Shown in pieces: positions 1 to 55,509 of a DNA stretch of 64,000 nucleotides. The notes under the pieces are model-generated. The model saw nothing but the letters and a program-made list of their open reading frames with translations. It was not told the origin of the DNA and did not search any database. Every line of letters begins with the position of its first letter. The stretch's first letter is position 1. The DNA lies in assembly GCA_017893485.1 (NCBI GenBank), contig JACEHZ010000367.1, positions 434,001 to 498,000 on the forward strand. Reading direction: 5' to 3'. This stretch comes from Hemerocallis citrina (taxonomy: Eukaryota; Streptophyta; Magnoliopsida; Asparagales; Asphodelaceae). Both the position numbers and the translations under genes were made by a program.

Positions 1-1292
1 GAGGGATTTGACGGAGGAGGTGTTGTTCGGGTGCGGCCTAAGCCCCATCAACCCGAGTATGCTCCTGACATCTCGTTTTTTTTTTATTTTTCTTCTAAGT
101 TTTCGGTTCGGGCTGCTAACTCGTCCCCCCCCCCCCTTTTTTTTTGACTCGTTGCAGAAGCAATGAAGATCGACTTCAACTCCATGATGGCGGACAGGTC
201 TAAGCTGGCCGGGGGGAAGAAGAGGAAGAGGGCGGCTGCGACTGTTTCGTCGACCCCGGCACCTGCCGTCGCCTCGACCATCTCTCCGCCTCCCCCTGCT
301 GTGGAGGTGCCCTCGGAAGTTATCGTCGCTGAGGAGCCCCCGTCTTCTTCGGTCCCTGGCGTGATCGAGGGGATCATCGATGTGAACGCGGCACTGTCGA
401 TAGAGGCACCACCGCTGACCCAGGCCGCCGAAGAGATTCTGACAGAGCAGCACAAGCAACTGTTCGTGCCGAATTGGCGAGTGAAGAACCATGACGGGTT
501 CCTCGGCAATTCACTGATGTCAGTGCAGGTCGTCAAACACTTGGCGACCCCGAAGGACAGGGCCGCGCTGAGGGCAGGGACGGTCGGTGACGACACTTAT
601 GAAGTCGCCCGGTCACTTGTTTCGGTAAGTGTATTGCAAATTTCGTTAAGTCTGCAACTCGGCATGTGTATTAGTGACTGTTGTCTCTGTAGGCCACTTG
701 CCACTTCGGCCACCTCCTCGAGACATTTGCCGCGCAGGAGAAGGAGCTGAGGTCCGCCAGCGACAAGGACAGGTTGGCGAAGGTCAGGGCGGTCAAAGAA
801 CTTGAGGCCGAGCAGAGGAGGTCTGAGGCCTTGGAAGTCCGGGTCGCGGATCTTGGGTCGGACTTGGAGAAGGCTAAGGAGCGGCTCGACGCGGAGTCTG
901 CCAAGGCTGCCAAGGCCGCCGAGGACTTAGCTGCGGCGCTGAAGTCCTTGGCCGAAGAGAGAGCGGAGAAGGATGCCCTGGCGACGAAGATCCGGGCCGA
1001 GGTGGAGAAGGTGGTCGAGGAAGAGGCGAAGAAGCACATGGCCGAAAATATGGAGAAGTCCTATCAAATGGCCCTCGACCACGTTCAGGAGCGTGTCCCC
1101 GGCTTCGATCGGGTCGGCTATCAATTGTTTCCAACGCCGACCTCGGACGATGAAGGGGAGGAAGGCGAAGAGGACGAGGCTGAAGGCGAAGGCGAGGAAG
1201 GACGGGATGGAGAGACTGTGGGAGATGGCCAGGTCAAGGGACCCTCCGTCGATGCACCTGTGGCTGACGCGGCGACGAAGGTGGACCCTTGA
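1..1292 (+). CDS. Antisense gene A of Tat-1 (gypsy-type PF04195-like protein, C-terminal coiled-coil part), partial
   Basis: This gene runs opposite to gag-pol. The visible exons are 1-56, 158-624 and 693-1292. The second exon holds a lysine/arginine patch (KKRKR) and an alanine/proline-rich linker. The third is strongly heptad-like, rich in Glu, Lys and Ala, followed by an acidic tail (EGEEGEEDEAEGEGEE) and a stop at 1292. Joining 624 to 693 keeps the frame exactly (phase 0). The homologous gene in Tat-2 (43540-45635) shows that the missing N-terminal part resembles the Pfam family PF04195, 'putative gypsy type transposon', whose function is unknown. The first intron lies at 57-157. Expression is not shown, but the reading frame is better kept than the gag-pol of the same element. 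Confidence 0.75.
57..157 (+). other. Probable GT-AG intron 1 in antisense gene A (Tat-1)
   Basis: The donor GTATGC follows the conserved exon (RDLTEE..LF.GGL-like peptide). The segment is T-rich with a C/T tract and ends in TTGCAG just before the next conserved peptide. The matching place in Tat-2 has the donor at 44443, but its acceptor AG looks lost. Confidence 0.6.
625..692 (+). other. GT-AG intron 2 in antisense gene A (Tat-1)
   Basis: The donor is GTAAGT and the acceptor CTGTAG; the segment is 68 bp, phase 0. Splicing joins ..SLVS to ATCHFGHLL.., and the Tat-2 copy has an intron at the same residue (..STVS / ITVHFGHLM..). Conservation of position and phase between diverged copies is strong support. 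Confidence 0.8.
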
Positions 1293-1467
1293 TCCCCTCA
1301 GTTTTTGTAGTTTTCTTCCTTTTTTCGTGTTTCGATCGTTGTAATGCCTTTTGCGGACTGGCCACCGCCTTTCAATGAATGAAAACTATTTTGACTCCGG
1401 AATTTGTCTAAGTGTTTGGCTCGGTAATGAATGAAGAATATCCAATGCTATCTCTTTCTTATTTCAG

Positions 1468-2181
1468 ATTGCCGAGCCGGCTTGTAACACTTTGGCCGAA
1501 CAGCGCCGAGCCGAGCTGTTTAAGCGATCTCGGGAGGATCGTCTCGAGGGTGAGGTTCACTTGACGAGGAAAATACTTCATAACTTGGAGATAAGGCATA
1601 GCGATGTTTTAGTTGAACTGCACCACCTGCGAATAGTCGAGGCCGAGCTATCTGCTAGGGAAGAGGAACTGGCTCGAATTTCAGCCGAACGGGACGGCTT
1701 GGCGAAGAAGGTGGAAGAGTTGCAGAGGGTGACTGTCGACAAGAGCGTCGAAGTGACCCACTTGCGTCGCGTTATCTCCGACAGCGCCGAATACCCCGGT
1801 TCGGCGAAACTCCCTCGGTTTAAGGTGATAGTAAAGGATGACACTTTGAAAGACCGCATCGTCGAGCTGGAGGAAGAAGTCGCTCGGCTCAAGCCTCAGC
1901 CGGTGAGGGCCAACGTCCGGAGCACCTCGTGCACCTGCGAGGAGATCGAGCGAGGGATCACGTTCTATCAAGCGGCGAGCCGGACTCCCCTCGTAGGCAG
2001 GTCAGCTGCCGATGCCCAAAGCGGTGTGGCGGTGTCTTCAAGCGGTGCTTCGGTAGGAGCAACCGTCAGAGTTAGTGGCGAGGAGGCGTCTCGGTTCGTC
2101 GGCCTAGATTCGAGCTCGGAGGTCAAGAAGCGTCGACCCAAAGTGTCTCTAAAACGGAGCATTCCTCTTCCTCGGAAGTAA
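1468..2181 (+). CDS. Antisense gene B of Tat-1 (coiled-coil protein with conserved basic C-terminus)
   Basis: This is a second plus-strand gene after gene A, open from a possible acceptor (TTATTTCAG, ending 1467) to a stop at 2181; no clear ATG start is seen. It is largely a Glu/Leu/Arg-rich coiled coil, then a motif with cysteines (STSCTCEE, near the middle), a Ser/Gly-rich stretch and a basic end (KVSLKRSIPLPRK). The Tat-2 copy (45874-46785) is longer and matches in the coiled coil (RVTVDKS.EVT), in the VKDD.LK.RIVELE.EVARLKP block and in the basic tail. The function is unknown. The conserved C-terminus argues that it is or was a real protein rather than a chance frame. Confidence 0.65.
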   Translation: MAEPACNTLAEQRRAELFKRSREDRLEGEVHLTRKILHNLEIRHSDVLVELHHLRIVEAELSAREEELARISAERDGLAKKVEELQRVTVDKSVEVTHLRRVISDSAEYPGSAKLPRFKVIVKDDTLKDRIVELEEEVARLKPQPVRANVRSTSCTCEEIERGITFYQAASRTPLVGRSAADAQSGVAVSSSGASVGATVRVSGEEASRFVGLDSSSEVKKRRPKVSLKRSIPLPRK

Positions 2182-34904: not shown

Positions 34905-34990
34905 TGGATTGCAGAAGTACAGGTACTGGATTGCAGAGGTACATGTATTGGATTGCAGAAGTACAGGTACAGGTACAGGTACAGGATTCA
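34905..34990 (+). repeat. Minisatellite (AGGTACTGGATTGCAGAAGT)
   Basis: Three to four copies of a unit of about 23 bp, followed by a short AGGTAC microsatellite. Confidence 0.8.
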
Positions 34991-38055: not shown

Positions 38056-38070
38056 TCACTCCCTCCTTAG
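38056..38070 (-). other. Polypurine tract of Chr-1
   Basis: The minus strand reads AAGGAGGGAGTGA directly before the LTR start TGTAATACC. Confidence 0.75.
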
Positions 38071-40072: not shown

Positions 40073-40864
40073 ATCTCTGTAGCGCCCCAAATTTCCAATA
40101 TGACATCTCAGAAATATGTGGCAGCATCAGCTTCAATTGCAATAGTAAACATAGCCAAAACACACATAATTTTTATTTCAACCTTTATTACATTCCTTGT
40201 TTACAAAACATAGAGGAATACAAAGCACCTTGAATTACAAACTTTTCTTTACAACACATCTTTACAATTTTACATAAGCCATAACATCATTTCTATCTCA
40301 AGCATCCAAATCCCAAGCTATAAGCACCTACCTGTAAAACATGAGGCTGGAGATAACCCTAACCCCCAAAACTACAGGGGTCAACCATAACGGTGTGAGT
40401 GACATAAAAAGAAAACAATATAAATAAAACATAAGGTATAGAGTCATAAATAATATGTTTTAATAGCAAGAATAAATGAAATGAGAAATAACAATAAGTA
40501 AAGCATGAAAACATCAAGAAATATAAGATAGTAAATAGTAGAGCATGAAAACAATAAGTAAAACTAGACTAAGTGTCAAGTGTAGGAAAAACAGAAAACA
40601 ACATGCATAAAACCAAATCAAGAAACATCAATGCTATATGACGACTCTCTAATGCATACTTGTCGGATTCTATGCATACCATACTATATAAGTCCGGTAC
40701 AAGCCCTTAACGATCTCCACTTTATAGGGTTAAATCCATCGTTATGCAACTAGTCCTTCTACGGTGATGGAAAACAAGATCTAGAATACTCCGCGAATAG
40801 GTACCATAGCCCTCGACACGCAAGTATCATGTAAGAATAGCTCTAAAACTGGAGAATCACCTCA

Positions 40865-41433
40865 TGTTGCAGCTAAATCTGGTGTGGGGGCAAACAGATA
40901 GAATTTGTGGATTCTTGGGATGTTGAATAGTCAAACCTGAAACCTTTTCGCTGGAGTTTGACCGTTATCTCCCGCCGTTGACCTGCAAAAAGTGCGAAAC
41001 ACCGGGGTTGATCCCGGCGATGCACCTTCCGACGCTCAAGTCAGTAATCAGAAAGATTATGAATGAGATTTTACTGGCAAAAGATTGAATACCTGTTAAT
41101 AGTAAGAGATGGGGGGTATTTATAGCCGCCTAGGGGACCAGTTTCGGAATAAGATCAAATCCCTACTTCCCAGTGAATGGATAGAAGTGAATCAGGGTCG
41201 TTGATTAAGTATAATCATAAACCCTAATTCTACCCAGCTGGACTGGGTCTCTTGCGGGTTGAAACCTGCACCCAGTTGAGATGGATCCGTTCGTGGGTTA
41301 TTGGGTCTTTGGAAAAAAGACCTAGTACTCACTTCAGACCCGTTTGTAGGTGAAATTATCATTTCACCCCTGATCTTCAAGATTTGCGCCTGATTTGGAC
41401 GGTTCCGATTTAGCCCTATTTTAAACCATATCA
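40865..41433 (-). repeat. 3' LTR of Tat-2
   Basis: 569 bp, TG..CA ends, with the polypurine tract on its right. It pairs with 54166-54734. Confidence 0.92.
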
Positions 41434-41450
41434 CGAGCTCCCCACTCCCG
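41434..41450 (-). other. Polypurine tract of Tat-2
   Basis: The minus strand reads CGGGAGTGGGGAGCTCG directly before the 3' LTR. Confidence 0.75.
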
Positions 41451-42145
41451 AAGACTGAGTTTAATCAGCCTTTGAGAAGTAGTTTTACTATTTTAATAGC
41501 TAGCGGAGTTGTATCGACGTCCATATGAGGGGTGTCGAATCTTTGTATGAGGTATTATGATGATTTTTAGCGTTGGTTGCGTGCCCAAGGTTGTTCTTGA
41601 GCTCTCCTGGACTTTTGGCAATTTTTCTTAATTTTTATCTATTTTTCAGACCATTTATTTAATTTCGTGAAGCGGTGATTTATTGTTCGGGGGCCTTAAT
41701 TAATTATTCTAAGCAATAATTATTTACCCAGGGGCTCAAAAATATTTTCCCGAATTTATAATTATTTTTTTTAGAATTTTTAATTAATTTTCCTAAATTT
41801 TTAATCGTTTTTTTCGCAATTTTTAAATAAATAATTCGATTTTAAAATAAAAAATTAATTTTTAAATATATTAATGTCGTGGCGCGATCTGGGCTCTTCA
41901 TCAGCCAACGACGCGAATTTTGGTGAGATCTAAGACCTGCGGTTGCTCGAAGGTGTGTTTCTCTTCATTCGGCGGCAGGTCGCTTCGGTGTCGCTGCCGA
42001 ACCCCTCCAAACACGTGTTAGGATGGAGGCCGAAGTCTAGGGGGGTTCGGGATCTCCTGCCGAGGTGTAGAGATACCTCGGCGCGGCAACACGTGTAATT
42101 AAGGGGTTCGGCGAGTCTTTGCCGAAGTCCGGAGTGGGTTTTACC
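41451..42145. other. Tat-2 sequence between polypurine tract and 68-bp array
   Basis: 41580-41880 is an AT-rich block shared with Tat-3; 41880-42145 is GC-richer and leads into the repeat array. No gene was seen. Confidence 0.6.
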
Positions 42146-43215
42146 ATGTTTGGGCATCAGTGCTAAGAGCGCTCGGCAAGGCATGCCGAGGTCCCAAAGT
42201 GAGAATTTTTTCCACGTTTGGGAGTCGGTGCCAAGAGGCAAGGCGTGCCGAGGTCCCAAAGTGAGGATTTTTTCCACGTTTGGGCGTCAGTGCCAAGAGC
42301 GCTCGGCAAGGCGTGCCGAGGTCCCAAAGTGAGGATTTTTTCCACGTTTGGGCGTCGGTGCTAAGAGCGCTCGGCAAGGCACGCCGAGGTCCCAAAATGA
42401 GGATTTTTTCCAAGTTTGGGCATCGGTGCCAAGAGCGCTCGGCAAGACATGCCGAGGTCCCAAAGTGAGGATTTTTTTCACGTTTGGGCGTCGGTGCCAA
42501 GAGCGCTTGGCAAGGCATGCCGAGGTCCCAAAGCGAGGAATTTTTCCATGTTTGGGTGTCGGTGCCAAGAGTGCTTGGCAAGGCGTGCCGAGGTCCCAAA
42601 GTGAGAATTTTTTCCACGTTTAGGAGTCGGTGCCAAGAGGCAAGGCGTGCCGAGGTCCCAAAGTGAGGATTTTTTCCACGTTTGGGCGTCAGTGCCAAGA
42701 GCGCTTGGCAAGGCGTGCCGAGATCCCAAAGTGAGGATTTTTTCCACGTTTGGGCGTCGGTGCCAAGAGCGCTCGGCAAGGCACGCCGAGGTCCCAAAAT
42801 GAGGATTTTTTCCAAGTTTGGGCATCGGTGCCAAGAGCGCTCGGCAAGACATGCCGAGGTCCCAAAGTGAGGATTTTTTTCACGTTTGGGCGTCGGTGCC
42901 AAGAGCGCTTGGCAAGGCATGCCGAGGTCCCAAAGCGAGGATTTTTTCCATGTTTGGGTGTCGGTGCCAAGAGTGCTTGGCAAGGCGTGCCGAGGTTCCA
43001 AAGTGAGGATTTTTTTCACGTTTGGGCATCGGTGCCAATAGTGCTCGGCAAGGCGTGCCGAGGTCCCAAAGTGAGGATTTTTTCCACGTTTGGGCGTCGG
43101 TGCCAAGAGCGCTCGGCAAGGCGTGCAGGGGTCCCAAAGTAAGGATTTTTTCCACGTTTGGGCATCGGTGCCAAGAGCGCTCGACATGGCGTGCCGAGGT
43201 CCCAAAGTAAGGAAT
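42146..43215. repeat. Array of about 16 units of 68 bp upstream of antisense gene A (Tat-2)
   Basis: The unit runs from CACGTTTGGGCGTCGGTGCC through GCGCTCGGCAAGGCGTGCCG to GAGGTCCCAAAGTGAGGATT. Some units lack CGCTCGG (62 bp). The short variant CCAAGAGGCAAGGCG appears at 42231 and 42632, so about six units form a higher-order repeat of 401 bp. Because the unit is not a multiple of three and has few stops, long frames run through it on both strands. Confidence 0.92.
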
Positions 43216-43373
43216 ACTGCTTGGAGATGACAGCTGGCCTTTGGACTGTTGATCTTCTGAGGACTTTGACCGTTAGTTATTAATGCGACAATACAACTTT
43301 TGCCGTTTTTGCGTAAATGGGCCTGATCGTTGGTCTTTCGAGGCCCAACATCCTCGTTTGGTGTGCCGGCTTC

Positions 43374-43380
43374 TATAAAA
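43374..43380 (+). promoter_or_regulatory. TATA box of the antisense genes in Tat-2
   Basis: CTTCTATAAAACTCAACACC lies 166 bases before the ATG of gene A and about 160 bases after the repeat array. A C/T-rich initiator-like region (CACTTCTTCACTACTCC) follows some 20-30 bases downstream. A donor-like CAAG|GTAACT near 43505 may mark a 5' UTR intron. Confidence 0.6.
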
Positions 43381-43539
43381 CTCAACACCCCCTCACTTCT
43401 TCACTACTCCAAATTTTTACTCAGGCGGTGAATTTCCTATCGAGAGCCTCCGGTGATCGTCGACCGTTTTTCGGTGAATACTCCCACCGCGACAGTCACT
43501 TCAAGGTAACTTACACTTAGTTTATTTTAAGTAGAAAAA

Positions 43540-45635
43540 ATGTCTCTTTCCCCTGTTTCGGAGCCCTCCCCCTCTGCTGGCAAAGCGCCGTCTCCGAGTC
43601 AGAGACCTCGCACCAACAAGGGCAAGAGAGTTGATGGTCGAGACACCATAGTGGAAGATCCGAAATGTATGGGGGAGTTCGACAGACTACCAGGGGTGCT
43701 GACGGGGCTCCATAGGTTTCGGGAACTTCCGGAGGAGCACGCCGAGCGTATAGTACATGGGAGGGGTCGAAGTTTCGAGGAGAACGCAGCGAGAGAGACC
43801 TAGGAAGCAGACGACATAGTTTCCATTCTCAATGAGGCAAACTTGGCAGCAATCCAGGAGTGCTTTCACATCCCGGAGGAGTACGAGTTGATGCTGCCGG
43901 GTCCCGGGGTGAGGGCCAACTCACCGATGCCGATAAACATGTGTTTCTGGCCGGTCGACGCCTTGATCGCCGGGGCACGTCTTCCTCTCCACCCGTTTGC
44001 ATCTCAAGTGCTTAGGTGGTTCGGGGTCAGCTCCATCCAACTAATGCCGAACACGTGGAGGGTCATCACGGGTTCACTCTCCATTGCCAGGCGGCCGAGA
44101 TCGAGCCGGAGGTGAGGGTGCTCCGGACACTTTACAGGCTTCATCAGTAGCATAAGGCCGAGTTCAGATACTACTTGGCTCCGAGGCATGGTGCTCGGCT
44201 CGTCAGCTGCCCCGACTCGATAAAACACTAGCGAGACAAGTATTTCATAGTCCGGAGTCGCGAGGCGTGGCCGATACCTTCAGGTTGGGTGGAGGAGGTA
44301 ACGAAGAGGGTGAGGGAGTCGCCAGTGCTTCATCCCAATGAGGAAGAGGCGGTCCAAATTCTTCTTGACCGGCCAAAGTTCGACTGGAGAGATCTGACCG
44401 AAGATGCGCTCTTCAGGGGAGGGCTCTGTCGCTTAGACCCCAGTACGCGGCTTTATCCGTTGTTATTTTTTTTCATATTTATTTTCGATCTTGTGTTTTA
44501 ACCAACTTTCCTTGCTGCTGGGACTATGGACTACGACGCAATCCTGGCGTAGAGGGCGGCCCTCAGAAGCAAGATGCCTAAGAAGCACAAGAGGGTTGCC
44601 ACGAAGTTGGCCTCGGGGAAGCCGAAGGCCGTCGATGCTGCCGCTCCGGAGGCAGAGGCTTCGACGATTTTGACCCTGAGAAGGGTGCCAGTAACGGCCT
44701 TGCCATCGATCGGGGCTGGCGAGTTCCCGATAGCCGCTGTGCTCGGGATAGAGGCGCCTCCGCTGACAGCGGATGCCGAGGTGTTCCTCACCGAGGAACA
44801 TAAGAAGATTTTCGTTCCGGACTGGCAAGTTCAGAAACATGATGGCTTCCTTGGCGATTCGACATCAAGCATGCAGGCGGTGAAACACCTAGCGACGCCG
44901 AAGGATCGAGCGGCCATGGATGCCGGCAGCGCGGGCGACGATGCCTTCGAGATCACGCGCTCGACGGTTTCGGTAAGTATTGATTCCCTCCTTGTTATTT
45001 ACTTGCATGTTGGTTTTTCTAACTCCCCCCCCCCTTTTGTTCGGCTGTAGATAACCGTCCACTTCGGTCATCTTATGAAGAAGATGATGGAGCTCGAGAA
45101 GGAGCTCAAGCAGGAGGTCGACCGTGCTCGGGCTGAAAAGGCACGCCTTGCCAGCGAGCTCGACAAATTGAAGGTTAAGTTCGAGGGGAAGACGACAAGT
45201 CTTGAATACCTTGAAGGCTTTGTTACGAAGCTCGAGGATGACCTGCTTCGGCAAAGGGAGGAGTCGGCCAAGGAGCTGGTCGAGGCGGTGGAAGCTGCCA
45301 AGATCGCGGTGGCGAAGGATGCCGAAGATGCGACTATGGGGAAAGCGCAGGGCTTCCTCGCGGCTAACATGGCCAAGGCGTATGCTCGCGCCATCGAGGA
45401 AGTAACGGAGCGGTACCCCGAGGTCGACTTCTCCAGATGGCGGCTCTTCCCTGATCACGTAGACGGCTTCGACACCGAGTCCGAGGGGGAAGGAGGGGAT
45501 GACGAAGAGGACGTCGAGGTCGAGGTGGTTGGCGAACGCCAGGGGCCCAAGGTGACTCTGCTAGCAATGGTCCCTCCTTCGGGGGAATCCGACCCCATCC
45601 AATCCCGTCGCCCCAAGAAAGAGGTCGCCCCCTGA
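43540..45635 (+). pseudogene. Antisense gene A of Tat-2 (PF04195-like domain plus coiled coil), with introns
   Basis: It starts MSLSPVSEPSPSAGKAPSPS. The domain at 43840-44440 (in two frames) has ARLPLHPFASQVLRWFGVSS, QLMPNTWRVI, then FRYYLAPRHG.RLV and KYFIVRS.EAW, the pattern of PF04195 ('putative gypsy type transposon', function unknown). A first intron donor is at 44443. The next exon, from 44574 to 44972, is joined by a GT-AG intron (44973-45050) to a coiled-coil exon ending at 45635 with an acidic stretch (EGGDDEEDVEVEV). Breaks are a TAG at 43801, a frameshift near 44065, further stops near 44152 and 44224, and a TAG near 44550. The Tat-1 copy (1-1292) supports the exon structure. It is convergent to pol and is not part of the polyprotein. 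Confidence 0.8.
44973..45050 (+). other. GT-AG intron in antisense gene A (Tat-2)
   Basis: Donor GTAAGT, a C/T-rich tract (CCCCCCCCCTTTTG) and acceptor CTGTAG; 78 bp, phase 0, at the same residue as the 68-bp intron in Tat-1 (625-692). Confidence 0.82.
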
Positions 45636-45873
45636 CTTATTCTTTTTTTTATATTATTTTTTTCTTCTTTTGATGTACTGCCTAATTGCGGACTGGCCAC
45701 CGCACTTTTTTTGACTAAATGAAAAATCCATCTTCTTGAGTTCGGCTAAATCTTTGTGAGTCCATGTCAATGAGTTTACAAAAGTTCTTGAAATTTGGCT
45801 GAGTGTTCATGTTGTCTCGTTCAAGAGTTGTCTTAGTGTTAACCAAACTTGCTAATTTTTTCAACTCGTTGAG

Positions 45874-46785
45874 GTGACCCAACTCGATAATGCGACTCAT
45901 GCGGCGGAGGGGTCAGGTTCCGAGGTGGGCTCAGGGGCAACGAAGTTGTGCCTCGCGAGGTGCCGAGAGCGTCTTTATGAAGTCGAGTTGGGGCTGTGCA
46001 GGGCCGAAAGCGAACGAAATCATCTGCAACTAATTGTAGGCTGCCACAACATCGAGATTCGGAGACTAGAAGGGAGGCTTGCTGATATGACCCCTGAAGG
46101 CGATGATGATGGGTCGTCAAGTGCCTTTACTCTTGGCTTGAGACTTAAGTGTCTCCGCCACTCCTTGTCGAAGATGACGACGGAGAGGGACGAGTTATTA
46201 GCTGAAATCCACCACTTGCAAATAGTAGAAGAAGAGCTTTTGGCGGAGGAAGAAGAATTAATATCGGCGGTGGGCAAGTTGATGGCCGAGCGCGACGAGT
46301 TAACGGCAGAGGTCGACGATTTGAAGAGGGTTACAGTCGACAAGAGTATCGAAGTTACTCAGCTCTGCCGAATTATTGCCGACCGTTCTGGTGCCGCAGG
46401 CTCCGCTGTGCCCCCTCGCTTTAAGATAGCCGTAAAGGACGACCCTCTGAAGCATCGGATAGTCGAGCTAGAGGCCGAAGTCGCTCGCCTCAAACCTCGT
46501 TCAGGACCGATCAACGTTAGAAGCACTTCGTGTACCCGTGAAGAGAGCGAGCGAGGGATTTCATTCTACGAGCTTGTGACTCGTTCGCCTATGGTTCGGC
46601 AACGTCCAGGTGATGCCCAAAGCGGGGTGGTTATCTCGTCGAGCGGCGCATCCGTAGGGGTGACTGTGAGAAGTAGCGTAGAGGGTACATCTCAGTTCGC
46701 CGGTCTAGGGACAAGCACCGAGGTTAAGCACTGCCACCCCCGGGTATCTTTGAAGCGGAACATCCCCGTGCCTAGGAGGCATTGA
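45874..46785 (+). CDS. Antisense gene B of Tat-2 (303-residue coiled-coil protein)
   Basis: An unbroken frame from an ATG at 45874 (MTQLDNATHAAEGSG) to 46785. Residues of about 25-215 are coiled-coil-like (Glu/Leu/Arg-rich). The conserved blocks are RVTVDKSIEVTQL, VKDDPLKHRIVELEAEVARL, NVRSTSC and the basic end RVSLKRNIPVPRRH. A Ser/Val-rich stretch (VVISSSGASVGVTV) lies between. The Tat-1 homologue is at 1468-2181. No enzymatic motif is visible and the role is unknown; a structural or nucleic-acid-associated accessory protein is a guess. It is the longest unbroken non-repetitive frame in Tat-2 outside gag. An alternative start upstream by splicing (TCAACTCGTTGAG|GTGAC) is possible. Confidence 0.75.
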   Translation: MTQLDNATHAAEGSGSEVGSGATKLCLARCRERLYEVELGLCRAESERNHLQLIVGCHNIEIRRLEGRLADMTPEGDDDGSSSAFTLGLRLKCLRHSLSKMTTERDELLAEIHHLQIVEEELLAEEEELISAVGKLMAERDELTAEVDDLKRVTVDKSIEVTQLCRIIADRSGAAGSAVPPRFKIAVKDDPLKHRIVELEAEVARLKPRSGPINVRSTSCTREESERGISFYELVTRSPMVRQRPGDAQSGVVISSSGASVGVTVRSSVEGTSQFAGLGTSTEVKHCHPRVSLKRNIPVPRRH

Positions 46786-47019
46786 GGCAGTCTTCTGTTT
46801 TCCAAGTTTTGAATCTGTCTAAGTATAAGTAGTCGGTCTTGTAATTTTGCTTTTTAACCCCTGTAACTTCGTTGTAAAGAGAAGTACTTGTAATTTTGAT
46901 TTGTTCCCCAACTTTATAGAAGAGAGACTTGTTCCCTCTCCTGGACTTGTGTGTTTTGTTAGTCAATTGTGGTTGTAGGAGCACTTTTGAAGGGCGGGCC
47001 ACTTCTTACTCGTTTATGA

Positions 47020-47325
47020 GAACGCTCGGCCAGGTGTGCCGAAGTCCAACGCGAGAGTATTTTCTCACGTTTGGGCGTTGGTGGCCAGAACGCTCGGCAA
47101 GGCGTGCCGAAGTCCAACACGAGAATTTTTTCTCACGTTTGGGCGTTGGTGCCCAGAGCGCTCGGCAAGGCGTGCCGAAGTCTAACGCGAGAGTTTTTTC
47201 TCACGTTTGAGCGTCGGAGCCCAGAGCGCTCGGCAAGACGTGCAGAAGTCCAATGCGAAAGTTTTTCTCACGTTTGAGCGTCGGTCCCAAAAGCGCTCGG
47301 CAAGGCGTGCAGAAGTCCAACTTTT
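47020..47325. repeat. Second array of the 68-bp family, downstream of antisense gene B (Tat-2)
   Basis: Five units of about 68 bp with CACGTTTG(A/G)GCGT(T/C)GG, CGCTCGGCAAGGCGTGC and GAAGTCCAACGCGAGA. It is related to the array at 42146-43215, so the antisense pair is bracketed by the same repeat family. Confidence 0.85.
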
Positions 47326-47589
47326 GACAACTACTTAAAATCAGAAGCAAGTCTTCCTTCTTATAGGCATAGAATGTCGACTTTACGAACTTGAGATTGA
47401 TAAGTAGTGCCATGGTTTTTGCAACCTCCTGAGGCGCTGCAAACTGTAAGAGAAATCATTTCAACTTTAAACGAACCATAAGGTTAGCTCTTCTAAGTAC
47501 TCTTTTCCCATGTCTAGTATACTGGTAGGAACCCGGTTGTCAGTCGAGTGATTTGGATTCCAAAGACGTGGTTCGAGTAAGTTTCAACG

Positions 47590-48165
47590 GTTGTGGGAGC
47601 AGTTCCGAATGGTGAACCACTTCTAGCTCGCTTAAGAGCGAGCTTGCGAAGCAGAGTCGAGCCAAGTTTTGGACTCCGAACACGTCGTTTGAGTGAGTTT
47701 CAACGGTTGTGGGAGCAGTTCCGAGTGGCGAACCACTTCTAGCTCGCTCAAGAGCGAGCTTGCGAAGCAGAGTCGAGCCAAGTTTTGGACTCTGAACACG
47801 TCGTTTGAGTGAGTTTCAACGATTGTGGGAGCAATTCCGAATGGCGAACCACTTCTAGCTTGCTTAAGAGCGAGCTTGCAAAGCAGAGTCGAGCCAAGTT
47901 TTGGACCCCGAATACGTCGTTTGAGTGAGTTTCAACGATTGTGGGAGCAGTTCCGAATGGCGAACCACTTCTAGCTCGCTTAAGAGCGGGCTTGTGAAGC
48001 GGAGTCGAGCCAAGTTTTGGACTCCGAACACGTCGTTTGAGTGAGTTTCAACGGTTGTGGGAGCAGTTCCGAATGGCGAACCACTTTTAGCTCGTTCAAG
48101 AGCGGGCTTGCGAAGTAGAGTCGAGCCAAGTTTTGGACTTCGAACACGTCGTTTGAGTAAGAATA
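47590..48165. repeat. Five tandem copies of a 116-bp unit next to the pol end (Tat-2)
   Basis: GGAGCAGTTCCGAATGGCGA-type anchors start at 47596, 47712, 47828, 47944 and 48060 (exactly 116 bp apart). Each unit has the inverted pair AGCTCGCTTAAGAGCGAGCT and ends in TTTTGGACTCCGAACACGTC. It is related to the Tat-1 half-unit and the Tat-3 repeat. Confidence 0.92.
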
Positions 48166-48339
48166 ATTAAAGGCCTTAAACAGAGAGACAAAATAACCAC
48201 AAGAGAAGTATGAGGGGGAAGGAAGTCTTTTACTGATAACTGCTAATCGGCTGCTTCTAAGTTGCAAGCCGCTATTACAATGAGAAAGTAAAGAAGCAAA
48301 TACAAATAAAATGATAGGAATGGCTCGACATTGGAAGGT

Positions 48340-49192
48340 ACTCGGAGAGACGTTCAGGAGCTCTCTTGGTACTTCAGTAAATGGTCGGCATTCACTTCTG
48401 GGTATCTCTTTGCCTTCAAGGTCCACTAGACGATACGCTCCGGGACGGACCACTTTGGAAACTTTGTACGGTCCTTCCAATTCGAAGCTAGCTTACTCTT
48501 TTGACTAGGGAACGAGATAGCTAGCTTTCTGAGGACCAAGTCCCCTTCCTTGAGATCTGTGGGACGAACCCTTTGTTGTAGGCCTGCTCAATCCTTCTCC
48601 GATAGAATAGAAGCTCTTTCACGGAGCTCATCAATTAGGTCAAAATTTGCTCGGAGTTCTCTCGCGTTCTGCTCTTCATCATAGGCAACAAGGCGAGGAG
48701 ATGGCAGAGCAACCTCTAACGGGATTACAGCCTCGGACCCATAGGTGAGATTGAAGGGTGACTCTCCTGTGGGGGTCCGTTTCGTAGTGCAGTAGTTCCA
48801 CAATACGTTTGGAAGCTGTTCCGCCTATAAGCCTTTGGCCGATTATCTAGTCTCTTCTTGATCCCGGAGAGGATCTTCCTATTGGCGTTCTCTACTTGGC
48901 CATTTGACTGAGGATGGGAGACGGAGGAGAAACGTTGCTGAATGCCGAGGTCTTCACATAAGGATCGGAACGCTGCTCCTGTAAACTGTGTTCCATTATC
49001 TATTATTAGGACCCGAGGTACGCCGAACCTACAGATGACATTTTTCCAGAAGAACTGCAGCACTTTGTTCTCAGTAATAGTAGCCAACGGTTCGGCCTCT
49101 ATCCACTTAGAAAAATAGTCGATGGCCACGACTAGGAACTTGAGTTGGCCTGTAGCTGGTGGGAAAGGACCCAGCAAGTCCATCCCCCACAT
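48340..49192 (-). pseudogene. Tat-2 integrase, frameshifted
   Basis: The core is at 49192-48840: AIDYFSKWIEAEPL, IIDNGTQFTGAAF and NGQVENAN, so all three catalytic residues are kept. The frame then breaks (ORFs 48803-48588 and 48480 onward). The C-terminal GPYKVSKVVRPGAY is at about 48480-48430. It has the same domain order as the Tat-1 integrase. Confidence 0.9.
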
Positions 49193-50562
49193 TGCGAAGG
49201 GAATTGGACTTGAGAGAGATGTGAGTTGTGCTTGGGGGAGGCGACGGATATTGGAGAACTGCTAACAAGGGCTGCATTGCTGGACATGTTGCTCGGCATC
49301 TTGAAGTAGGGTAGGCCAAAAATATCCGTAGTTCGGAACTTTCTTGGCAAGGGACCTGTACCCTGAATGTGCTCCGCCTATGCCTTCGTCGAGTTCTTGC
49401 AAGGCATACAAGGCTTCTTCCGGGGAGAGGCACCTCAAGTAGGGTCTGCCATCTACTTGGGTGTAGGAGCGTTTGTACAAGACTCCTTCAACAAGGGTGT
49501 ACCCTCCGCTCTCATTCGGATTCGACGGGCTTCTTTAGGGTCTTCGGGAAGGACCCCGTCCCTGAGAAACTCTATCAAAGGCTTCATCCAGTTGTCCCGG
49601 AGTTAGACGGGCAGCGACTCCATAGAGTCGGGGGCTTCTTCTTCTATGCTCGGTCTTAGGAGTACTTCGATGAGGATGGTCTGCTCAAGACCTTGGAAGG
49701 AGGAGGAGGCTAGTTTGGAGAGGGCATCCTCTTGGGAGTTATCTTCTCTAGGGATCCGCTGGATTAGCGCCTCTTCGAATGAAGCCATGAGACTTTGGAC
49801 CTTGGCCAGGTACTTAGCCATTCGGTCGTCTTGCGCTTCGTACTCCCCTAAGACCTGATTCACGACCAGCTGCGAATCACTGAATATTCGGAGATGCTGT
49901 GCTCCAGCCCTGCGTGCCATACCCAGGCCGGCTATGAGGGCTTCATACTCAACTTCGTTGTTGGAGGCCTTAAAGTTGATGCGGAGGGAGTATTGGATAA
50001 CGAAGTCATCTGGTCCTGCTAGAATGACCCCGGATCCGCTCCCTTTGGTGCAAGAGGACCCGTTTACATATACTGTCCAGATGGGAGGCCCGTTTGTCAC
50101 TTGGCTAACTTCCAGGATGGTACTCTCAACAATAAACTCAGCTAAGGCTTGAGCCTTGATGGCGGTCCGAGGCTGGTAAGATATGTCATGTTGACTCAGC
50201 TCGATCAACCACTTCATCAGACGACCGGAGGTCTCGGGTTTGTATAGGACTTGCTTAAGCGGCTGATCGGTGAGAACGACCACCGAGTGGGATGGAAAAT
50301 AAGGGTGGAGCTTCCTAGCTACCATAACCAAAGCGTATGCTGTCTTTTCTAATCTCGGATAGCGGAGCTTGGCATCTCTGAGAACCTTGCTCACATAATA
50401 GATAGGCTTCTGAGCCTTGTCTTCTTCCCTCACTAGGATAGCACTGAGAGTTTGCTCGGAGGCAGCTAGGTAGAGGTAGAGTGTTTCCTCGGGAATAGGC
50501 TTGATGAGGAGAGGGGGATTGACCAGATAGGCCTTCAGTTGATTGAACGATTCTTACTGCTG
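49193..50562 (-). pseudogene. Tat-2 RNase H, archaeal-type RNase H and integrase zinc finger, broken
   Basis: The RT-linked RNase H lies at 50433-50200 (KPIYYVSKVLRDA, VVLTDQPLKQVL). The archaeal-type domain lies at about 50080-49700 with YVNGSS where Tat-1 has YVDGSS (catalytic Asp changed to Asn), NEVEYEALIAGL and IFSDSQLVVNQV. The zinc-finger segment is 49480-49262. Frameshifts separate the pieces near 49600 and 49260. At 50550-50565 the codons read TAA..TAA where Tat-1 has Gln codons. Confidence 0.88.
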
Positions 50563-51330
50563 TTAGCCCCACTCGAAGCCCTTAGCCCCCCTGAGGGCTT
50601 TGAAGAAAAGAAGACACTTCTCTCCTGACTTAGACAGGAAGTGCCCTATGGCCGCGAGGCGCCCTGTGAGCTTCTGAACCTCTTTCACACTTGTAGGAGG
50701 AGCCATGTCCAGTATGGCTTTGATCTTCTTGGGGTTGGCTTCGATCCCTCTTTGACTGACCATGAAGCCTAGGAACTTTTCCGAAGAGACTCCGAACGCA
50801 CACTTGTTCGGATTGAGCCTCATATCATGCCTCCTCAACACGTCGAATGCTTCTTGGAGATCGGCAACATGGTCGGCCCCATGGATGCTTTTAACTAGCA
50901 TATAGTCAAAATACACTTCCATGTTTCGGCCGATCTGATTCTGGAAGACCTTATTGACGAAGCGCTGGTAGGTTGCACCGACATTTTTTAGCCCGAAGGG
51001 CATTACCCTGTAGCAATAGAGTCCTTTATCGGTGACGAAGGAGGTCTTCGGGATATCCGGGGGGAACATTCTGATTTGGTTGTATCCGGAGAAGGTGTCC
51101 ATGAAGCTCAGCAGCTCATGCCCCGAGGTAGCATCGATCAAGGTGTCGATGCTGGGGAAAGGGAATGGATCCTTAGGGCATGCTTTGTTCAGGTCCGTGA
51201 AGTCGATGCAAATTCTCCAACTTCTATTGGCCTTCTTGACCATAACAACATTAGAGAGCCATTCGGGATAGTTGACTTCTTGTATGAACCGGGCTTTGAG
51301 GAGCTTGTCTACTTCTTCATTTATGGCTTG
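50563..51330 (-). pseudogene. Tat-2 reverse transcriptase with altered active site
   Basis: The RT palm has FMDTFSGYNQ (first catalytic Asp kept) and FGLKNVGATYQR. The YVDD box reads YFDY (residues 111-114 of the segment 51243-50563, codons about 50913-50902), so the second Asp of the pair is Tyr, which should abolish polymerisation. A TAG near 51330 (CAG in Tat-1) separates it from the upstream segment. Confidence 0.9.
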
Positions 51331-52047
51331 CTAACGCTCAGGGGCAAATTTGCGCCTCTTCTGCTGGACCGGTTTGGACCCCGGAGCAACGCTTAGGTGG
51401 TGGACGAGGAGCTCCTCGGAAATTCCTGGCATATCGGCAGCCGACCAGGCGATGAGGTCATGGTTCTTCCTGATGCATTGGATTATGTCGGAACATAAGG
51501 CAGAGGGGAGGGTCTTGCTGATGAAGAACTTGCGGTTCGGATCTTGCTCAGAAAAGAGCACTTCTTCTAGCTCGTCCACTGGTTCGGACATAGGTTGGGC
51601 GTTCTCCTGGGGAATCTCAAGAGTCTCGAGGGAGAGGACAGGTCCCCCGGTGGAGGTCATGTAACACTTGCGGGCCATCTCTTGACTACCCCTTACTTCT
51701 CCTACACCTGACTTGGTGGGGAACTTCATTTTAAGATGATAAGCCAACGGGACGGCCTCTAAAGCAGCTAGGCCAGGTCGGCCTAGAATCACATTATAAG
51801 CAACTGGGATGTCGACGACCATGAAATCCATTGGCTCCGTCCGGGTAGTAAGAGTTTTGCCAGCGGTTATGTCGAGGGTTATTACCCCTTCGATAGTCAC
51901 TGGCACTCCCGTGAACCCATGAAGCGTGTAGCCGGCGGGCTTGAGCCTGTCCCGCGATAACTTGAGTCCTCGGAAGGCCGCCAGGAAGAGGATGTTGACA
52001 GAGCTACCATTGTCCACCAGAATCCTCTCTACTTTGAAGTTGGCCAT
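51331..52047 (-). CDS. Tat-2 protease and start of RT (gag-pol segment)
   Basis: The protease active site is VDNGSSVNIL close to the segment start (MANFKVERILVDNG), with YNVILGRPGL later. The linker to RT carries ELEEVLFSEQDPN and ADMPGISEELLVHHLS, then PVQQKRRKFAPER and a stop. A 10-bp deletion near 52055, relative to Tat-1, puts this segment out of frame with gag. Confidence 0.88.
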   Translation of the reverse strand: MANFKVERILVDNGSSVNILFLAAFRGLKLSRDRLKPAGYTLHGFTGVPVTIEGVITLDITAGKTLTTRTEPMDFMVVDIPVAYNVILGRPGLAALEAVPLAYHLKMKFPTKSGVGEVRGSQEMARKCYMTSTGGPVLSLETLEIPQENAQPMSEPVDELEEVLFSEQDPNRKFFISKTLPSALCSDIIQCIRKNHDLIAWSAADMPGISEELLVHHLSVAPGSKPVQQKRRKFAPER

Positions 52048-52061
52048 GTGGAGGTTGATTA

Positions 52062-53825
52062 CTAATGGGGGGTTCGGACACCCTCCAGGTCTTCATCTGG
52101 GAAAATCACCGGGACTCCGAGGCCTTTGGGAGGGGGTATGCCATGAACCGAATTGACTTCTCGTATGAAAGCCTTCCGGGAAGAGTTGGAGGTTCCTCCC
52201 ATGGGACCTCCATGCATGAGATGCAAGATGCGTTCCTCTTCAAACTCGGGAGTCTCTTCGCGCCTCTTGGGATGCTTGTTAGCTTCCTTGGGGGGAGGAA
52301 GAAGATCAATTCGGTTCTTTCTCACAAATTTAGACAGTTGCCCTCTCTGGATGAAGGCCTCAATTTCATTCTTCAGGGCCCGACAGTCATTGGTGTCGTG
52401 GCCGTGCTCTCGATGATATCGGCACCACTTTTCCTTGTCCCTCTTCTTGCCAGGGGTATTCATCTTCGGGGCAGGAGGCAGAACTCCTTCCTTCTTGACT
52501 TCCATGAGAATAGTAGAAATGTTGGCGTTAAGAGGGATAAACTTCTCAAATCTGGGAGGCGGGCGGTGCTGGCCCCCGTTGTCCTTCTGAAGCTTCTTAG
52601 CTCCCTCTTCTTCAGCTGCCTTTCTCTTGGTCCCGGAGGAAGACCCCTCAAAAGTGGGGCGATGTTCAGCTTCCTCGGCTCGGATATACTTCTCGCTTCT
52701 CAGAGGAAGGTCGGAGAAGTTTTGCGGGGGCTTTTTGGCTAGGGAGGACCGAAGGCTTGAGTTTAGTACATTTGACTGGAAGGCTGCTGTAGCGACCGAT
52801 TGGTCGAGGGAGGCAATGGACATAGCTTCCACGGTAAACCGCTTCACATAATCTCTCAGCTTCTCGCCCTTCTTCTGACTGAGGTAAAGTAGCGAGATAC
52901 TAGTCTTCTCGGTGCGACGGCTACTTACGAAGTGGGTGATGAAGAGGGTTTCAAATTGTTCAAAGGAGAAGATGGAGGACGGGACGAGGCAAGAGTACCA
53001 TTCCCGAGCCGAACCTTTGAGAGTAGCTGGGAAGGTCTTGCATAGTAGAGCATCGGAAGCCTGGTGGATCATCATGAGAGTTTTGAAACTCTCGATGTGA
53101 TCCACGGGGTCGGACTCCCCAGTATATGTTTCAAACTGCGGGGGCTTGAAGTTCGGTGGAACGGGTGCTTCCATGATAGTTCGGGAGAAGGGAGGTCGGC
53201 TTGGACGGAGGGCCCTTCCTCTGAGCTCCTCTTCCCTGTTTAGTTGCCCGTGGTGCCTCTCCATCTCATGGAGACGACGGTAAACAGCATTATCCCTTTG
53301 ACAGTACCTTGGCAAGCCTCTGGACTCGTCTTCGAACAAAGGGGAGCATGGGGTTCGGCGATGGTAGCTAGGAGAATGATGAGAACTGGTGATGTGATGG
53401 CAGTGGCTCAGAGCTTGAGGAGGAGTTAGGGACCGATGGTGAGGACTTTGGACCGGAGGAGGAGTGGGGACCCTCTGAGCATTGTTGTTGTTGTCTGGTC
53501 GGAGGTTGAGGGCTTGCAAGATGGTGGCTTGGAATTGTTGGAATTCGGCTCGAGTGATAGGCCCGTTTTCATCCCTCGGGGGCCGCCGACCAGCGGGAGA
53601 GTGATGCCTTCTTCGATGGTTCTCAGGGGACTCTCTCTGCCTTCTGTGAGGAGGGGACCTCCTATGGTCGCAACGACGAGGAGATCGCTCATTTGGACGT
53701 TCTGAGCGGGTGGCTCCGTCACGGGCCTGCCTCTCATCCAAACGGCGGCGAAGGTCCTCTTCTTTCTGCTGGTTGATAAGGATGTTGCAGAGGTCTTCGG
53801 AAGGCCGGGGGTTGTGAGATTCCAT
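52062..53825 (-). CDS. Tat-2 gag (587-residue open segment)
   Basis: This is the longest open frame in the window. It has an Arg-rich N-terminal part (RRCDHRRSPPHRRQRES), the ITRAEFQQFQATI motif and the gag core (HIESFKTLMMIHQASDALL, KTFPATLKGSAREWYS, FEQFETLFITHFVSSRRTEK, YVKRFTVEA). The nucleocapsid-like motif is KWCRYHREHGHDTNDCR, followed by the protease linker LHLMHGGPMGG. The Met at 53825 lies after a decayed leader, in which MPPKKMRS near 54095 probably was the true start. Stops occur between. Confidence 0.88.
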   Translation of the reverse strand: MESHNPRPSEDLCNILINQQKEEDLRRRLDERQARDGATRSERPNERSPRRCDHRRSPPHRRQRESPENHRRRHHSPAGRRPPRDENGPITRAEFQQFQATILQALNLRPDNNNNAQRVPTPPPVQSPHHRSLTPPQALSHCHHITSSHHSPSYHRRTPCSPLFEDESRGLPRYCQRDNAVYRRLHEMERHHGQLNREEELRGRALRPSRPPFSRTIMEAPVPPNFKPPQFETYTGESDPVDHIESFKTLMMIHQASDALLCKTFPATLKGSAREWYSCLVPSSIFSFEQFETLFITHFVSSRRTEKTSISLLYLSQKKGEKLRDYVKRFTVEAMSIASLDQSVATAAFQSNVLNSSLRSSLAKKPPQNFSDLPLRSEKYIRAEEAEHRPTFEGSSSGTKRKAAEEEGAKKLQKDNGGQHRPPPRFEKFIPLNANISTILMEVKKEGVLPPAPKMNTPGKKRDKEKWCRYHREHGHDTNDCRALKNEIEAFIQRGQLSKFVRKNRIDLLPPPKEANKHPKRREETPEFEEERILHLMHGGPMGGTSNSSRKAFIREVNSVHGIPPPKGLGVPVIFPDEDLEGVRTPH

Positions 53826-54144
53826 TGAGTTGGTTGAAGAGTTATGTATGGAGATGTGGTCACGGTGAAGGGGTTGTTTATGAGGATTGGGACGAGAGGT
53901 CCTTACACTAGTATTCTAGGTCCCGAGTGGAGCCCACTAGGATTGAAGAGGAGGTTGCTCCTACTGTAGGGGCTGATCAGGCTGAGGAGGGAGTTGCCCC
54001 TGCTGTTGGACGGTTTGGAGGGGGACCTCCTGTTGCGGTTGAGGAGGAGTGGGTCCGCGGTTGGACCCTTTGGATCTCATTTTCTTTGGAGGCATGGCTG
54101 GAGGTGCTCTTAACCAATGGAAGAGGATGAGTTGCTATTCGTTT

Positions 54145-54162
54145 TTCCCACAGACGACGTCA
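54145..54162 (-). other. Decayed primer binding site of Tat-2
   Basis: TGACGTCGTCTGTGGGAA on the minus strand, two transitions away from the Tat-1 site. Confidence 0.65.
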
Positions 54163-54302
54163 ATCTGTTGCCGCTGAATCTGGTGTGGGGGCAAACAAAT
54201 AGAATTTGTGAATTCTTGGGATGTTGAATAGTTAAACCTGAAACCTTTCCACTGGAGTTTGACCGTTATCTCCCGCCGTTGACCTGCAAAAAGTGCGAAA
54301 CA

Positions 54303-54318
54303 CCGGGGTTGATCCCGG
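54303..54318 (-). other. Conserved GC hairpin in Tat-2 LTR leader
   Basis: CCGGGGTTGATCCCGG on the plus strand, about 105 bases after the TATA box in the direction of transcription; also at 41002-41017 in the other LTR. Confidence 0.5.
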
Positions 54319-54417
54319 CGACGCACCCTCCGACGCTCAAGTCAGCAATCAGAAAGATTATGAATGAGCTTTTACTGGCAAAAGATTGATTACCTGTTAA
54401 CAGTGGGGGATGGCGGG

Positions 54418-54426
54418 TATTTATAG
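54418..54426 (-). promoter_or_regulatory. TATA box of the Tat-2 5' LTR
   Basis: The minus strand reads CTATAAATA in the same context (GGCGGCTATAAATACCC) as in Tat-1. Confidence 0.7.
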
Positions 54427-55509
54427 CCGCCTAAGGGACCAGTTGCAGGATAAGACAAATCCCTACTTCCCAGTGAATGGATAGAAGTGAATCAGGGCCG
54501 TTGATTAGGTATAATCATAAACCCTAATTCTACCCAGCTGGACTGGGTCTCTTGTGGGTTGGAACCCGCACCCAGTTGAGATGGATCCGTTCGTGGGTTA
54601 TTGGGTCTTTGGAAAAAAAGACCCAGTACCCACTTCAGACCCGTTTGTAGGTGAAATTACCATTTCACCCCTGATCTTTAAGATTCGTGGCTGATTTGGA
54701 CGGTTCCGATTTGGCCCTATTTTTAGCCATATCACCTCCCAACTGTGTACCCTACAATAGGCTTGCGAGGCCCTCGACGTGCAGATACACCGAGTACATC
54801 CCGTGAATAGGCCCGCTGACCCTCGACACACGAATGCACCCTGCATGCTCCGTGAATAGGCCTGCAGACCCTTGACACCTGAACATACAAATGTCATCTC
54901 GAGACAGGACAACAAACAGTCCTGGAATGCATCCGTTGGACTAAAGAGACCAAGTGCATAAACTCACGTTTCCTAAGTTCCATCACATCTCCACCAGTGC
55001 CTTTCCTTAGGTTGGTTATTATTAAAACATAAAAATCCTCATCTCTAGAGTTAGTGTATCTTACCGGACTTAATTCCACAAAATAAACCCAAGACCTCGC
55101 AGGTCTAAATCCACAAATCTCATCTGTCGGTTCATAGGACTCCCACTCAACTCCGAGAGAAATCACAACTCATCCATCAAGACCAAAACTTTTAATAAAA
55201 CTCACAAATCCATCATCAAAATGGATTATATGAAGAAACCACTTAAATCAACAAATATTCAAATCTTATATAAAATTCTAGAATCCAAATAAATATTAAA
55301 TCTATTAAATAACTGAAAATCATATTTTTAAGTTGCAGAATATCGCAAAACATCAATTCCTTTGAAAACACGTATAACTCAAATAAGGTCCAAAAGAATA
55401 CATTTAAAGCTCTAATATAAATCTTGTAAAATATTTTTAATCTGTAGCAAAATATCTTTTAAAACAATATAATATTGAAGGAACAATCGATAAAAAGAAG
55501 CATCAGAAA

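What the first reader, a model, noticed from the sequence alone, without database searches (positions are those of the whole stretch)
43374..46785. Antisense two-gene cassette with its own TATA box inside a Tat retrotransposon, shared with Tat-1
Between pol and the 3' LTR, Tat-2 carries two plus-strand genes (A: PF04195-like domain plus coiled coil; B: coiled coil with a basic tail), opposite to gag-pol. Tat-1 has the same pair (1-2181). Gene B in Tat-2 is an unbroken 303-residue frame while the gag-pol around it is full of stops. Antisense additional ORFs are known in Tat elements, but a spliced two-gene unit with its own promoter is worth study; function is unknown.
Basis: partly seen in the sequence, partly recalled or inferred. 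Interest (0 to 1): 0.75.

Follow-up and report, generated by a model that had tools for sequence, protein, structure and literature searches.

The report
Spliced antisense accessory unit in retrotransposon
A plant retrotransposon carries, on the strand opposite to its replication genes, a protein-coding unit that is probably spliced; antisense genes of this kind are already known, but the sequence suggests that the two "genes" described here may be two alternative endings of a single gene.

Summary
The antisense cassette is real and protein-coding, but it belongs to a published kind. Gene A carries Pfam PF04195 (E 1.9e-8). It is the antisense "TRP28" accessory ORF that Vicient 2025 (PMC11963269) reports in 97% of recently active Retand-element clusters, alongside antisense ORFs with Smc or other domains. 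An antisense gene with its own promoter is published for maize Grande (as cited in PMC7264820).

What I add: (1) Tat-1 and Tat-2 share an intron between A exons 2 and 3, same place and phase. (2) The three segments compared show purifying selection (pN/pS: B core 0.35, A exon 2 0.46, A exon 3 0.61). (3) In Tat-1, B has no methionine in 237 codons and follows a strong acceptor; in both copies B is in phase with the exon-2 donor. B is probably an alternative last exon, not a second gene. (4) An 18-nt non-coding block after A is identical in both copies.

No transcript data could be examined; no relatives were found, in databases that seem to hold few plant proteins.

The parts
40868..54741 (-). 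Tat-2, the host element (bounds approximate); LTRs about 40868-41440 and 54166-54741
   Evidence: LTR pair 40865-41446 / 54166-54744, 92.8% identity; K2P 0.068; flanking 5-mers GGAGG / TGAGG (one mismatch) read; RT and RNase H matches; gag, RT and integrase-region matches to Tat-1 pieces
42139..43213 (.). 68-bp tandem array (16 copies) immediately upstream of the antisense unit
   Evidence: 73-81% identical to the array at 47019-47321
43374..43379 (+). TATA-like box, putative promoter of the antisense unit
   Evidence: sequence; not tested functionally; 30 TATAAA on the plus strand of the window
43540..44442 (+). Gene A exon 1 (ATG 43540), PF04195/TRP28 domain; broken in Tat-2 (stops at 43801, 44148, 44229; frame change between about 44080 and 44105)
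   Evidence: PF04195 E 1.9e-8 for 43804-44103; frames
44443..44525 (+). Intron 1, approximate (donor GTACGC at 44443, weak; acceptor apparently lost in Tat-2; Tat-1 counterpart 57-157)
   Evidence: compared by eye
44526..44972 (+). Gene A exon 2 (start approximate; in-frame stop at 44550), with a basic stretch PKKHKR (Tat-1: KKRKR) that resembles a nuclear localisation signal (recalled motif)
   Evidence: tblastn between the copies, 46-48% identity; pN/pS 0.46 for 44565-44972
44973..45050 (+). Intron 2, 78 nt, phase 0, TCG|GTAAGT...TGTAG; Tat-1 counterpart 625-692, 68 nt, same donor 9-mer and phase
45051..45635 (+). Gene A exon 3, coiled-coil-like, acidic tail, stop; first alternative last exon in the proposed model
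   Evidence: tblastn to Tat-1 exon 3, 33% identity; only weak, below-cut-off Pfam matches, some to helical models; pN/pS 0.61
45686..45703 (+). 18-nt non-coding block TTGCGGACTGGCCACCGC, identical in Tat-1 (1351-1368); AATGAAAA follows 14 nt later (9 nt in Tat-1); likely 3'-end or splice control site
   Evidence: longest exact match between the two cassettes; longest match in 2000 shuffles of the two 3' regions was 13; only 2 sites with up to 3 mismatches in the window
45874..46785 (+).
46840..46893 (+). Cluster of four TGTAA after the B stop (Tat-1: four in 2204-2297); plant poly(A)-type upstream elements (recalled)
   Evidence: window density 1.1 per kb
47019..47321 (.). 68-bp tandem array (4.5 copies) on the other side of the cassette
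47552..48158 (.). 116-bp tandem array next to pol, related to Tat-1 3265-4124 and Tat-3 28382-28663
1..1293 (+). Tat-1 gene A, cut by the window edge: end of exon 1 (1-56), intron 57-157, exon 2 158-624, intron 625-692, exon 3 693-1293
1468..2181 (+). Tat-1 exon B: 237 codons without methionine, after acceptor TTTCAG ending at 1467 (top 0.1% of AGs in the window by a crude score)

Best explanation
This is the antisense accessory transcription unit of a Tat-clade (Retand-like) Ty3/gypsy retrotransposon. It is transcribed by RNA polymerase II from an internal promoter next to the tandem array near the 3' LTR, on the strand opposite to gag-pol (inferred). The pre-mRNA has a 5' part, exon 1 with the PF04195/TRP28 domain and exon 2 with a basic stretch. 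A strong phase-0 donor at the end of exon 2 joins either to exon 3 (coiled coil A, with its own 3' end) or to exon B (a different coiled coil with a conserved basic tail, with its own 3' end). The element would thus make two proteins with the same N-terminal TRP28 part and different oligomerisation parts (exon structure supported by two copies; alternative use inferred). The proteins most likely work in the nucleus as oligomeric, DNA-associated regulators of the element's own expression or integration, by analogy with the nuclear Grande gene23 protein (inferred; about 0.35). The antisense placement lets the unit keep introns: they cannot be spliced out of the sense genomic RNA that is reverse-transcribed (inference from established splicing rules).
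For: PF04195 in exon 1. Exon 2/3 junction kept in place, phase and donor 9-mer TCG|GTAAGT in two copies whose proteins are only 51% (exon 2) and 40% (exon 3) identical; the proteins join as ..SLVS|ATCHFGHL.. and ..STVS|ITVHFGHL... Both exon-2 donors are in the top 0.3% of GT sites of the window by a crude recalled score matrix; acceptors of exon 3 are in the top 2.5% (Tat-2) and 4.2% (Tat-1). Purifying selection: pN/pS 0.35 [0.28-0.43] for the B core over 204 codons, 0.46 [0.37-0.58] for A exon 2 over 136, 0.61 [0.50-0.75] for A exon 3 over 171, with third-position excess in the plus-strand frame. B has 0 methionines in 237 codons in Tat-1; its acceptor there (TTTCAG, top 0.1%) and the Tat-2 acceptor are both phase 0, as is the exon-2 donor. 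Both A and B are followed by their own 3'-end-like signals. Two long helices in the B model; 11 of the 13 ten-residue blocks from 21 to 150 have mean pLDDT above 90.
Against: No transcript was seen. Only two copies could be compared. The Tat-2 acceptor of B is mediocre (81st percentile) and the intron-1 donors are weak (Tat-1 83rd percentile; Tat-2 scored lower still). Phase agreement alone has a one-in-three chance (inference). A donor late in exon 3 could also reach B in phase: Tat-2 45552 is strong (99th percentile), Tat-1 1233/1281 are weak (88th/82nd). Exon 3 and exon B show no detectable sequence relation, so there is no sign of an exon duplication. dS is saturated, so the omega values are only rough; the N-terminal part of B, which does not align well, was left out of the selection test. 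The B model rests on two sequences and its tail is of low confidence. Gene A of Tat-2 is broken, so Tat-2 itself cannot make the A protein.
Confidence: 0.55

Rival explanations
1. Two separate antisense genes, A and B, each with its own promoter and start codon.
For: Each has its own stop and a 3'-end-like region; in 63 published Retand clusters 104 antisense ORFs were found, of which 57 carry TRP28, so 47 others exist.
Against: B has no methionine at all in Tat-1 and no start codon conserved between the copies; a strong acceptor stands directly before it in Tat-1; only 174 bp (Tat-1) or 238 bp (Tat-2) lie between the A stop and B (coordinates).
Confidence: 0.15
2. One fused protein: exon 3 is spliced near its end to exon B, so B is exon 4 of gene A.
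For: Late donors in exon 3 are also phase 0; Tat-2 45552 AAG|GTGACT scores in the top 1%.
Against: The Tat-1 candidates are weaker and not at the aligned place; the region between has a conserved 18-nt block and AATGAAAA, which looks like a real 3' end of A.
Confidence: 0.2
3. The antisense RNA, not the protein, matters: it pairs with the genomic RNA and feeds or dampens silencing; the frames are remnants.
For: The unit is complementary to the element's own full-length transcript; a dsRNA role is discussed in PMC7264820.
Against: Amino-acid-level purifying selection on A exons 2-3 and the B core between Tat-1 and Tat-2 needs translated proteins over much of their history. It does not exclude an added RNA role.
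Confidence: 0.07
4. Chance or decaying frames without coding history.
For: Gene A in Tat-2 has stops and a frame change; an open B in Tat-2 is expected by chance.
Against: Pfam match above cut-off; pN/pS well below 1 in three segments; intron position kept.
Confidence: 0.03

Closest known systems
Antisense TRP28 (PF04195) accessory ORF of Retand elements (Vicient 2025, PMC11963269; text parts 1-3 of 5 read)
   Same: Same domain, same place between pol and 3' LTR, same antisense orientation, antisense ORFs with Smc-type domains also reported, tandem arrays nearby.
   Different: That survey used ORF Finder; a word search of its main text found no 'intron', and 'splic' only in its reference list. 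Here the unit appears spliced and the second ORF appears to be an exon.
Maize Grande gene23 (Gomez-Orte et al. 2013; not read, known from PMC7264820 and PMC11963269)
   Same: Antisense gene between pol and 3' LTR, transcribed from its own upstream promoter; protein nuclear.
   Different: Whether gene23 has introns or a second last exon was not seen; sequence not compared.
pvRetro13 and the other common-bean Ty3/gypsy families with antisense ORF2, 15 in all (Gao et al. 2014, PMC4093653; passages read)
   Same: [quoted passage not shown] some proteins match SMC, i.e. coiled-coil-like.
   Different: Described as a single ORF2 per element; no splicing in the passages seen.
Ogre elements (Tat clade; passages of PMC6317226)
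   Same: Tat-clade element with a spliced transcript.
   Different: The Ogre intron is in the sense transcript between gag-prot and the rest of pol; here the introns are in the antisense unit.

Membership tests
Tat clade of Ty3/gypsy (Neumann et al. 2019, PMC6317226, passages) | A second RNase H (aRH), between RH and INT in Ogre and Retand | tested here: met
   In Tat-1 piece 5114-6892, RT_RNaseH (146-245), then RVT_3 (288-405), then Integrase_H2C2 (517-557); Tat-2 piece 49606-50553 has RT_RNaseH then RVT_3. Reading RVT_3 at this place as aRH is my inference.
Retand lineage | Antisense ORF with PF04195 between pol and 3' LTR | tested here: met
   E 1.9e-8, above the curated cut-off; the frame itself is broken in Tat-2
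Retand lineage | RT phylogeny places the element in Retand | not tested
Retand lineage | POL-3'LTR region of 2,933-6,566 bp (published range) | tested here: inconclusive
   Tat-2 about 6.9 kb (integrase-region match ends 48345; LTR edge about 41446), slightly longer; 1.1 kb of it is the 68-bp array
[quoted passage not shown]
   Arrays at 42139-43213, 47019-47321, 47552-48158
Grande gene23 type (antisense gene with own promoter) | Promoter activity upstream of the antisense gene | not testable with these tools
   Only a TATA-like sequence at 43374
SMC proteins | ATPase head domains (recalled definition) besides coiled coil | tested here: not met
   B and A exon 3 give only weak matches below every curated Pfam cut-off, none of them an SMC model

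The most novel reading that the evidence does not exclude
The two antisense 'genes' of such Retand elements are one gene with two mutually exclusive last exons, giving two nuclear proteins that share a TRP28 domain but oligomerise through different coiled coils. Introns persist through retrotransposition because the unit is antisense, and the conserved 18-nt block in the first 3' end controls the choice.
Probability: 0.4. Interest if true: 0.6.

Novelty: new member of a known kind. Interest (0 to 1): 0.4.

Why it matters
Antisense accessory genes are reported in nearly all recently active Retand clusters, yet their function is unknown and, in the surveys I read, they were found by scanning for unspliced ORFs. 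If the unit is spliced, such scans miss the true proteins. It also offers a simple reason for the antisense orientation: only antisense introns survive copying through the sense genomic RNA. The alternative-last-exon idea can be tested with RNA-seq and with the published set of intact elements.

Tried and rejected
Protein database: B (309 codons) gave 4492 word candidates and no hit at E <= 1e-3; the PF04195 piece (100 codons, so only candidates of 55-175 residues were eligible) gave 7 candidates and no hit at 0.01. Since PF04195 is described as restricted to flowering plants, I take this as a database with few plant proteins, not as absence. Viral contigs: 59 pattern matches, no relative. PDB sequences: no credible match for the PF04195 piece (best 0.0073, to a designed TIM barrel) and none for B at 0.1.

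Structure of the PF04195 piece: mean pLDDT 52, not usable, so no fold search was made. RNA folding of the 18-nt block region, both copies and both strands: not better than shuffles (z +0.82, -0.43, +0.23, -0.66), so a hairpin is not supported.

The idea that exon 3 and exon B arose by duplication was dropped: best blastp E 0.59 in four comparisons. The idea that the open B frame in Tat-2 shows recent selection was dropped. The third Tat element (Tat-3) was examined for the cassette: none of the tblastn hits printed (E below 0.1) lies in it.

Literature: eight answered searches of the held library listed no paper whose title or abstract start describes splicing of these antisense genes. The lists were capped: 20 of 2,657, 20 of 159 (11), 8 of 8 (27), 20 of 8,338 (33), 10 of 49 (41), 1 of 1 (42), 12 of 219 (56), 8 of 110 (61). 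Passages of PMC11728184 concern Athila and Tekay accessory ORFs; passages of PMC3091746 did not show gene23. The Grande gene23 (2013), Retand (2006) and Steinbauerova (2011) papers were not read.
Full report
What was checked. The finding places an antisense two-gene cassette at 43374-46785 inside a Tat retrotransposon. The window was self-compared (only matches of at least 120 bp, E below 1e-10, printed), scanned for repeats and read in the relevant frames. Tat-2 is a minus-strand LTR element of about 13.9 kb whose LTRs are 92.8% identical (K2P 0.068, 29 transitions and 8 transversions in 578 sites). By Pfam, gag and integrase were found in Tat-1 pieces, and RT and a double RNase H in pieces of both elements. 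The order RNase H, RVT_3, integrase in Tat-1 fits the Tat clade as defined in PMC6317226 (passages).

The genes. Gene A has the Pfam domain PF04195 in the piece 43804-44103 (E 1.9e-8, above cut-off). The other pieces of A that were scanned, and B, reach no curated Pfam cut-off. B is predicted as two long helices followed by a low-confidence tail that is nevertheless conserved in sequence. Tat-1 carries the same A (cut by the window edge) and B at 1-2181. Tat-3 (LTRs 24187-24768 and 59300-59877) gave no tblastn hit of A or B among those printed, E below 0.1.

Gene A of Tat-2 is broken: stops at 43801, 44148 and 44229, a frame change between about 44080 and 44105, and a stop at 44550. The statement that B is intact while gag-pol is broken is true but weak. 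A simulation from the present B sequence leaves it without a stop in 52%, 44% and 37% of runs at 0.030, 0.0375 and 0.045 substitutions per site; half the LTR divergence is 0.034 (indels not modelled). In the same call, Tat-1 gag-pol pieces matched Tat-2 over 2030 codons (some overlapping) with 15 stops and several frame changes.

Selection. Codon alignments of Tat-1 and Tat-2 give pN/pS of 0.35 (bootstrap 0.28-0.43) for the B core over 204 codons, 0.46 (0.37-0.58) for A exon 2 over 136, and 0.61 (0.50-0.75) for A exon 3 over 171. For comparison, gag gives 0.20 over 364 codons and five segments of the protease-RT-RNase H-integrase region give 0.11, 0.08, 0.09, 0.12 and 0.30; the last (integrase) runs past a frame break and is probably inflated. 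Left out were the poorly aligning start of B (94 codons in Tat-2, 33 in Tat-1) and the first part of exon 2. Synonymous sites are saturated, so omega is only rough (0.13, 0.16, 0.32 for B, exon 2, exon 3). The antisense proteins have thus been kept by selection between the two element lineages, though less tightly than gag and most of pol. Exon 1 could not be tested because all but the last 56 nt of Tat-1 exon 1 lies outside the window.

Splicing. Between exons 2 and 3 both copies have a short intron (68 and 78 nt) with the same donor 9-mer TCGGTAAGT and a TGTAG acceptor, both phase 0, and the joined proteins align across the junction. Intron 1 has a strong acceptor in Tat-1 (57-157, top 0.2% of AGs) but weak donors in both copies, and in Tat-2 its acceptor seems lost. 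The percentiles come from a crude score with matrix values from memory.

B as an exon. In Tat-1, B has no methionine in 237 codons (at an assumed 2% frequency the chance is 0.008). It follows a near-ideal acceptor (TTTCTTATTTCAG, top 0.1%) and is in phase 0 with the exon-2 donor; the Tat-2 acceptor at 45873 is also phase 0 but mediocre (81st percentile). No start codon is conserved. The simplest account is that B is an alternative last exon. A fusion through a late donor in exon 3 remains possible: Tat-2 45552 scores in the 99th percentile, the Tat-1 candidates in the 88th and 82nd.

A conserved non-coding block. The longest exact match between the two cassettes is not in coding sequence but after the A stop: TTGCGGACTGGCCACCGC, 18 of 18 nt. 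The longest match in 2000 mononucleotide shuffles of the two 3' regions was 13, and there are only two sites with up to three mismatches in the window. For scale, exact matches of up to 36 nt occur in gag-pol and 33 nt in the LTRs, so the block stands out within the cassette, not within the element. It lies 9 nt (Tat-1) and 14 nt (Tat-2) before AATGAAAA. It does not fold better than shuffles. After each B stop there are four TGTAA within about 120 nt, against a window density of 1.1 per kb; reading these as plant poly(A) elements is from memory.

What is known. Vicient 2025 (PMC11963269; [quoted passage not shown] Vicient and Casacuberta 2020 (PMC7264820; parts 1-2 of 3 read) cite Grande gene23 as transcribed from its own promoter and nuclear, and ask for study of antisense and spliced transcripts. 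Gao et al. 2014 (PMC4093653; passages) report antisense ORF2 in 15 common-bean families. The finding therefore belongs to a known kind. Splicing of the antisense unit is not mentioned in the main text of PMC11963269 by a word search, and none of the eight answered library searches (capped lists) showed such a paper by title or abstract start. Unheld papers may describe it.

Most likely working. Supported by the sequence: an antisense coding unit, an exon structure shared by two copies, and selection on the protein. Inferred: transcription from an internal promoter, alternative last exons, nuclear action of a TRP28 protein with coiled coils, and regulation of the element itself. An antisense unit can keep introns because the sense genomic RNA carries them as non-spliceable complement; this follows from splice-site orientation and was not tested.

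Noticed in passing
45686-45703 and 1351-1368: 18-nt identical non-coding block just after the A stop in both Tat copies, longest exact match of the cassette; role unknown (3'-end formation or splice choice suspected).
   Followed up: partly
42139-43213 and 47019-47321: The same 68-bp tandem repeat (73-81% identical) stands on both sides of the antisense cassette in Tat-2; the unit contains the inverted repeat TCGGCA-TGCCGA. Possible binding sites for the element's own protein.
   Followed up: no
47552-48158, 3265-4124, 28382-28663: A tandem repeat next to pol is recognisable in all three Tat elements of the window (about 70% identity to the Tat-2 array), unusual for arrays described as highly variable.
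   Followed up: no
24187-59877: Three-level nest: Tat-2 lies in the right LTR of another element (LTR pieces 29177-38057 and 40076-57723, about 90-93% identical), which lies inside the gag of Tat-3 (LTRs 24187-24768 / 59300-59877).
   Followed up: partly
24769-29178: This part of Tat-3 shows no match to the pol of Tat-1 or Tat-2 nor to the antisense cassette and has its own 114-bp arrays (26882-28124); a possible non-autonomous derivative.
   Followed up: partly
30194-35341: About 5.1 kb in the left LTR of the middle element that is absent from its right LTR, with 183- and 190-bp tandem arrays; a probable further insertion.
   Followed up: no
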